From positions 1 through 25,818 of IMG/VR virus record IMGVR_UViG_3300009537_001331: a DNA stretch of 25,818 nt. One strand, 5' to 3'. Shown here one piece after another: positions 14,273-14,405 of this stretch. This DNA comes from a virus. The notes beneath the pieces were generated by a model. That model worked only from the letters and a program-made list of their open reading frames with translations. It was not told the origin of the DNA and ran no database searches. How positions within the stretch are numbered: the first letter of the stretch is position 1; every line of letters starts with the position of its first letter. A program made the translations under genes and the position numbers.

Positions 14273-14405
14273 ATCCGAGCTGAAGTGAGACCGTTATCAT
14301 CTAATAAATGAGAGGTCGTTGGTTCGAGTCCAACCCGACCTATAATTGGTCGGTAGCTCAGTTGGTTAGAGCGCTAAAACGCGGTTTTGCATACCTTGCT
14401 CGGGT
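14273..14405 (+). ncRNA. Y RNA (YrlA-like) with a permuted tRNA body
   Basis: Helix 1 pairs 14273-14280 with 14398-14405. Helix 2 pairs 14285-14293 with 14382-14390 (nine pairs, three wobbles). Between them is an internal loop, TGAA opposite ATACCTT. The body then runs: hairpin CAT-CTAATAA-ATG (14298-14310), variable-loop-like AGGTC (14313-14317), T arm GTTGG/CCAAC with loop TTCGAGT (14318-14334), CCGACC (14335-14340), 7-nt loop TATAATT, GGTCGG (14348-14353), and a canonical D arm GCTC-AGTTGGTTA-GAGC (14356-14372). This is a tRNA in which the acceptor stem is capped and the ends leave at the anticodon stem, as established for bacterial YrlA RNAs, the partners of Ro60 encoded just downstream. 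An alternative is a true permuted tRNA gene. The TATAAT loop could also be read as a promoter element but lies inside the RNA. Confidence 0.75.

What the first reader, a model, noticed from the sequence alone, without database searches (positions are those of the whole stretch)
14298..14375. Circularly permuted tRNA body that rebuilds a near-perfect cloverleaf
Putting 14348-14375 before 14298-14340 gives a 6-bp acceptor GGTCGG/CCGACC, a canonical D arm, a perfect 5-bp anticodon stem (CT from one half, CAT from the other, against ATGAG), loop CTAATAA, variable loop AGGTC and a perfect T arm. Neither half has any other partner within 200 bases. The loop would read as tRNA-Ile with anticodon AAT, rare in bacteria. 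This is more tRNA-like than I would expect of a Y RNA and may be a recent capture of a real tRNA by permutation.
Basis: seen in the sequence. Interest (0 to 1): 0.85.

Follow-up and report, generated by a model that had tools for sequence, protein, structure and literature searches.

The report
Phage Y RNA mimicking whole tRNA
A virus of bacteria carries, just before its Ro60 gene, a small Y RNA whose head is a complete transfer-RNA shape cut open in the anticodon stem and resealed at the other end; such tRNA-mimicking Y RNAs are known, but here and in about half of the relatives examined the mimicry extends to a full anticodon arm, which points to something that recognises that arm.

Summary
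A covariance model built from 41 relatives without the window finds exactly these bases (74.2 bits, E 5e-20). It is the head of a Y RNA (14273-14405; Rfam YrlA 42 bits), one of three tandem Y RNAs upstream of a phage Ro60 gene (14568-16181). That YrlA heads are circularly permuted tRNA mimics is published, so the permutation is not new. What goes beyond the Rfam family is the anticodon arm: the Ro60-binding stem enters between tRNA positions 28 and 29, leaving a real hairpin. Of 99 permuted modules found near Ro60 genes of bacteria and phages, 48 have this arm with all five pairs. The two pairs that bridge the halves and the 15-48 tertiary pair covary. Positions 33 and 37 are kept while the anticodon triplet drifts. 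'Recent capture of tRNA-Ile' is not supported: the best real tRNA is 82% identical, and across the class anticodon and body isotypes do not agree. The acceptor is closed and has no CCA, so it is a tRNA mimic rather than a translating tRNA. Proposed role (inferred): a Ro60-tethered decoy or handle for a tRNA-binding enzyme.

The parts
14273..14405 (+). Y RNA 1 (YrlA-type): outer stem, Ro60-binding stem and permuted tRNA-like head
   Evidence: Rfam RF02553 42.4 bits at 14276-14405, E 3.9e-8 for the 501-base stretch and 4.8e-10 in the whole-window search, below the gathering score of 69; closing stem 14273-14280/14398-14405 in the fold
14298..14375 (+). complete circularly permuted tRNA-like head (tRNA positions 29 to 28)
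   Evidence: model R1 built without the window: 74.2 bits, E 5.4e-20
14298..14312 (+). anticodon hairpin, positions 29-41 (CAT CTAATAA ATG), plus positions 42-43 (AG), which pair with 14374-14375
   Evidence: sequence; 46 of 46 modules with the hairpin keep both bridging pairs
14313..14334 (+). variable loop AGGTC (14313-14317) and T arm (14318-14334)
   Evidence: sequence
14335..14353 (+). acceptor stem closed by a 7-nt loop (CCGACC TATAATT GGTCGG); no CCA end
   Evidence: sequence
14354..14375 (+). positions 8-9, D arm (14356-14372), position 26, and positions 27-28 (CT), which pair with 14311-14312
   Evidence: sequence
14197..14263 (+). Y RNA 0: plain Y RNA hairpin with the GGTTATC motif and no tRNA-like head
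   Evidence: fold z-score -4.3, 0 of 200 shuffles as stable
14426..14546 (+). Y RNA 2: Y stem with GGTTACC motif, a hairpin, a T-arm-like and an acceptor-like hairpin and a degenerate D arm
   Evidence: fold z-score -3.0; weak R1 hit, 10.8 bits
14568..16181 (+). Ro60 gene (TROVE and vWA_Ro60 domains, DxSGS motif)
   Evidence: Pfam E 9e-45 and 3e-27; PDB 1yvp, 9nen and 2nvo, E 3e-80 to 8e-75

Best explanation
The element is the head of a phage-encoded YrlA-type Y RNA, made and used with the Ro60 protein encoded directly downstream. The head is a whole tRNA fold, circularly permuted: the acceptor stem is sealed by a short loop, and the chain is opened in the 5' strand of the anticodon stem (between positions 28 and 29), where the Ro60-binding Y stem is joined on. 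The anticodon arm survives as a true hairpin. Shown here: sequence, covarying pairs, kinship to YrlA, Ro60 linkage, and U33/R37 kept while the triplet drifts. Established elsewhere for YrlA or Y RNA: Ro60 binding, tethering of PNPase, modification by tRNA enzymes. Inferred: Ro60 holds the Y stem and presents the head as a handle or decoy for tRNA-binding enzymes. In a phage this may redirect RNA decay or shield host tRNAs from tRNA-targeting nucleases; the arm would matter for partners that read the anticodon loop's shape and not its triplet. The confidence given is for the identity and architecture; for the role alone it is about 0.35.
For: YrlA match; Ro60 gene about 160 bases downstream. 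Permuted modules lie near Ro60 genes in phages and bacteria; three further phage records found by DNA similarity also have a TROVE/Ro gene near the module. In 46 modules chosen only for the 3-bp hairpin, pairs 27-43 and 28-42 are Watson-Crick in 46 of 46 (shuffle means 19.3 and 15.0), and the 15-48 Levitt pair holds in 97 of 99 modules (shuffle mean 55.4). Covariation score 0.717 against 0.19 shuffled and at most 0.125 slid. Hairpin at the canonical tRNA spacing in 46 of 99, against 4-11 at shifted registers. Loop entropy 0.7-1.0 bit at positions 32, 33, 37, 38 and 1.8-1.9 bits at 34-36. Literature: YrlA head superposes on tRNA by circular permutation (PMC11472068), is modified by DusA and TruB, and binds PNPase (PMC8394870); a role as competitive inhibitor of an anticodon nuclease was proposed in PMC7790460.
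Against: Rfam score is below the family's gathering cut-off (42 against 69), as for every phage and plasmid YrlA hit scanned (24-59 bits). The unconstrained minimum-energy fold does not form the D and anticodon arms. No expression, binding or modification data. The cellular role is inferred. Retention of U33 could be partly inherited, not selected. Nothing is shown to recognise the anticodon loop.
Confidence: 0.85

Rival explanations
1. A genuine permuted tRNA gene, as in red algae: the two halves are cut from the precursor, joined, and give a working tRNA-Ile.
For: Rejoined halves are called tRNA-Ile(aat); best real tRNAs are tRNA-Ile(GAT), 82% over 71 bases, with a loop one base away.
Against: It lies in a Y RNA beside Ro60 with Y RNAs on both sides. 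No CCA, and the relatives show freely drifting triplets and bodies that do not match them. I know of no bacterial enzyme that splices such precursors, and tRNA-Ile(AAT) is not a normal bacterial tRNA (both own knowledge).
Confidence: 0.03
2. A recent capture: a host tRNA-Ile was duplicated in tandem and the inner halves became the head of an existing Y RNA in this phage lineage.
For: The closest phage relative by Ro60 (L094, 60% aa) has a head without this anticodon hairpin; tRNA-Ile(GAT) is the nearest real tRNA with the loop included; many Ro60 loci lie beside tRNA arrays.
Against: With the loop masked, tRNA-Asn (0.83) and tRNA-Ile (0.82) are equal. Identity to a Y RNA head of CcrColossus is about 80%, no worse. 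The nearest other relatives, L114 and L137, have the same head class.
Confidence: 0.12
3. The hairpin after GGTTATC is a general Y RNA loop and only looks like an anticodon arm.
For: Plain Y RNAs also carry a small hairpin after GGTTAYC, for example in Polyangium L018 and Y RNA 0.
Against: Spacing to the T arm, covarying pairs 27-43 and 28-42 between the halves, a 7-nt loop with U33 (41 of 48) and purine 37 (46 of 48) are tRNA features.
Confidence: 0.08

Closest known systems
YrlA-type bacterial Y RNA (Rfam RF02553; Salmonella YrlA, PDB 6CU1)
   Same: Y stem, then T arm, closed acceptor stem, D arm and back to the Y stem; circularly permuted tRNA mimic; encoded beside Ro60
   Different: The RF02553 consensus has no anticodon hairpin: the Y stem replaces the anticodon arm. 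Here a 13-nt hairpin is inserted and the Y stem joins at 28/29
Permuted tRNA genes of red algae and archaea
   Same: 3' half before 5' half with a short sequence between them
   Different: Those are spliced and become working tRNAs (own knowledge). Here the RNA has a Ro60-binding stem at the cut site and no sign of processing
Y RNAs of other Ro60 phages (Mycobacterium phage I3, Gordonia phages, Microbacterium phages FuzzBuster, SM23 and Magritte, CcrColossus)
   Same: Same head with an anticodon arm, near a Ro60/TROVE gene
   Different: Different triplets (GTT, TCT, TGG, TGC) and acceptor sequences
Deinococcus radiodurans Ro60-Y RNA-PNPase machine (RYPER)
   Same: Ro60 plus Y RNA partnership; probable working analogue
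   Different: No PNPase gene was identified in the part of this phage seen; link not tested

Membership tests
YrlA-type bacterial Y RNA | Sequence and structure match to RF02553 at the gathering score | tested here: not met
   42.4 bits against 69; full-length model match with E 4.8e-10 in the window. Clear kinship but outside the curated cut-off, as for every YrlA hit in the 12 phage and plasmid loci scanned
YrlA-type bacterial Y RNA | Gene beside a Ro60 orthologue | tested here: met
   Ro60 at 14568-16181
YrlA-type bacterial Y RNA | Long stem formed by the 5' and 3' ends, with the conserved GGUUAYC region | tested here: met
   Stem in the fold; GTTATC at 14293-14298, matching the motif except that its first G is C
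YrlA-type bacterial Y RNA | tRNA-like head with D arm, T arm and closed acceptor stem | tested here: met
YrlA-type bacterial Y RNA | Binding to Ro60 and modification by tRNA enzymes | not testable with these tools
   Needs RNA and protein work
Functional permuted tRNA gene | Splice-type motif at the ends and a mature CCA-tailed tRNA | not testable with these tools
   No CCA in the sequence; no splice motif test was run; RNA needed
Functional tRNA | Found by a tRNA finder in native order | tested here: not met
   ARAGORN 0 genes; linear RF00005 matches 17.6 and 19.5 bits against 29

The most novel reading that the evidence does not exclude
Anticodon-armed Y RNAs form a second, widespread topological class of bacterial and phage Y RNA, in which a complete tRNA (U-turn anticodon loop included, triplet irrelevant) is presented on Ro60 as a decoy or guide for enzymes that attack or handle the anticodon loop, for example anticodon nucleases in phage-host conflict.
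Probability: 0.25. Interest if true: 0.72.

Novelty: new variant of a known kind. Interest (0 to 1): 0.5.

Why it matters
Accessible descriptions of YrlA mimicry name the D, T and acceptor arms. If about half of the Y RNAs near Ro60 also keep a full anticodon arm with a conserved U33 but a free triplet, the Ro60 machine has, or had, a partner that senses the anticodon loop shape. That gives a testable lead on what bacterial and phage Y RNAs do. It also shows that the Rfam cut-off misses the phage Y RNAs examined here, and that several 'tRNA' genes annotated in phages are probably Y RNAs.

Tried and rejected
Ordinary tRNA in native order: rejected. Two adjacent tRNA genes mimicking a permutation: considered because the model also hits tRNA arrays at lower scores; rejected because no outer halves exist here, the acceptor strands match 6 of 6, and a Y stem encloses the module. 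Recent capture from tRNA-Ile: best real tRNA 82%, isotype concordance absent. Viral-contig scan with the window's Ro60 alone found nothing; the alignment query found 80 loci. Key primary papers on Y RNAs (PMC4201824, PMC6281776, PMC6047535, PMC10870794) are not held, so I could not check whether the anticodon arm has been described. A first energy script had the acceptor shifted by one base and was redone. The careful tree did not finish; the quick one was used.

Full report
What is in the window. The window is a 25.8-kb virus record from IMG/VR with replication genes (DNA polymerase, helicases, sliding clamp, clamp loader, UvsX-like recombinase). At 14568-16181 it encodes a Ro60 orthologue with TROVE and vWA_Ro60 domains; the closest solved structures are Ro60 proteins and Rsr. 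Between 14190 and 14560 lie three tandem Y RNA hairpins: Y0 (14197-14263, no tRNA-like head), Y1 (14273-14405, the finding) and Y2 (14426-14546, a degenerate head).

Check of the observation. Rfam's YrlA model matches 14276-14405 over its full length at 42.4 bits (E 3.9e-8 in the stretch searched, 4.8e-10 in the window), below the gathering score of 69. In that alignment the anticodon hairpin is a 13-nt insertion. I built a covariance model from 41 relatives, leaving the window out. It finds exactly 14298-14375 at 74.2 bits, E 5.4e-20.

Relatives. Ro60 loci were taken from phages, plasmids, bacterial genomes and viral contigs. A search for T arm, acceptor, loop, acceptor and D arm in that order gave 99 distinct permuted modules after removing evident tandem-tRNA cases. 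Two topologies appear. In class II (18 with all five pairs, 10 more with four) the anticodon stem is made of strands from both halves and runs on into the Y stem, so the opening is in the anticodon loop; this is the RF02553 layout. In class I (48 with all five pairs, the window among them) positions 29-41 form their own hairpin and only 42-43 pair with 27-28 of the other half, so the Y stem joins between 28 and 29. The remaining modules fit one layout with fewer pairs, both, or neither.

Tests of the class I fold. At the canonical tRNA spacing 46 of 99 modules have the 3-bp, 7-nt hairpin, against 4 to 11 at shifts of one to three bases. These were chosen without looking at 27-43 and 28-42, yet both pairs are Watson-Crick in 46 of 46, with several pair types. 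The tertiary 15-48 pair, also between halves, is G-C or A-T in 97 of 99 modules of both classes. On the alignment the covariation score is 0.717 against 0.19 for shuffles and at most 0.125 for slid controls. Related sequences inflate such counts, but the slid controls keep relatedness. ARAGORN accepts 48 of 48 rejoined modules, 297 of 938 wrongly joined ones and 6 of 48 in native order, so its verdict alone is weak.

The loop. Positions 32, 33, 37 and 38 carry 0.7 to 1.0 bit of entropy, positions 34-36 1.8 to 1.9 bits. Among the Cellulomonas-type loci the triplet differs almost from genome to genome (CCT, GTC, GTG, GTC, GTT, CGA) while C32 and U33 stay. This fits retention of a U-turn loop without a decoding role; inheritance from the tRNA ancestor may contribute.

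Origin. The rejoined body matches real tRNAs at up to 82% over 71 bases; these best hits are tRNA-Ile(GAT), found beside tRNA-Ala. In phage records its best-ranked match is tRNA-Lys at 77%. It matches another Y RNA head (Caulobacter phage CcrColossus) at about 80%. With the loop masked, the body of a class I module does not point to the isotype of its own triplet (mean rank 10.1 of about 19, none at rank 1). So recent capture is not supported, for the window or in general. Class I and II are scattered on a quick Ro60 tree (about 20 changes for class I), so the arm has probably been gained or lost many times. An attractive but untested origin is tandem duplication of a tRNA followed by loss of the outer halves; Ro60 loci are often beside tRNA arrays.

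How it works. Published work gives the frame: YrlA superposes on tRNA by circular permutation (PMC11472068), is modified by DusA and TruB and binds PNPase (PMC8394870), and was proposed as a competitive inhibitor of an anticodon nuclease (PMC7790460). I infer that the phage Ro60 holds the Y stem and shows the head to tRNA-binding enzymes, and that the anticodon arm widens that mimicry. The identity is well supported (about 0.95); the role is a guess (about 0.35). A translating tRNA is unlikely: the acceptor is closed by TATAATT, there is no CCA, and the triplet is not conserved.

Status. Permutation and tRNA mimicry are known for this RNA family. The complete anticodon arm with the 28/29 junction is absent from the Rfam consensus and from the descriptions I could read, but the main primary papers were not available, so the novelty of that variant is provisional.

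Noticed in passing
L009:1392-1468, L011:1626-1692, L174:2137-2204: Annotated 'tRNA-Arg(tct)' (Microbacterium phage Magritte), 'tRNA-Asn' (Microbacterium phage SM23) and 'tRNA-Gln' (Caulobacter phage CcrColossus) upstream of Ro60/TROVE genes overlap anticodon-armed Y RNAs; they look like misannotations.
   Followed up: partly
L174:2300-2960: CcrColossus carries an array of several Y RNA-like elements before its TROVE gene; two have a Leu-type D arm (GGCGGAATTGGTAGACGCA-like) and one a long variable region, as if class II tRNAs had also been permuted.
   Followed up: no
L018, L016, L034, L073, L088, L136, L170: Several Ro60 loci lie within or beside what look like tRNA gene arrays; this could be the source of permuted heads by tandem duplication.
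   Followed up: no
window 18072-20642: DNA polymerase with an N-terminal uracil-DNA-glycosylase-superfamily domain fused to 3'-5' exonuclease and PolA.
   Followed up: no
window 14422-14552: Y RNA 2 seems to be a decaying copy of the same head: T arm and acceptor hairpin present, variable loop lost, D arm diverged.
   Followed up: partly
window 734-1693: Radical SAM protein with a SPASM domain encoded in the phage.
   Followed up: no
L006:4416-4472: A pistol ribozyme match (56.8 bits, gathering score 34.5) lies in the tRNA array downstream of the Ro60-like gene of Gordonia phage GMA2.
   Followed up: no
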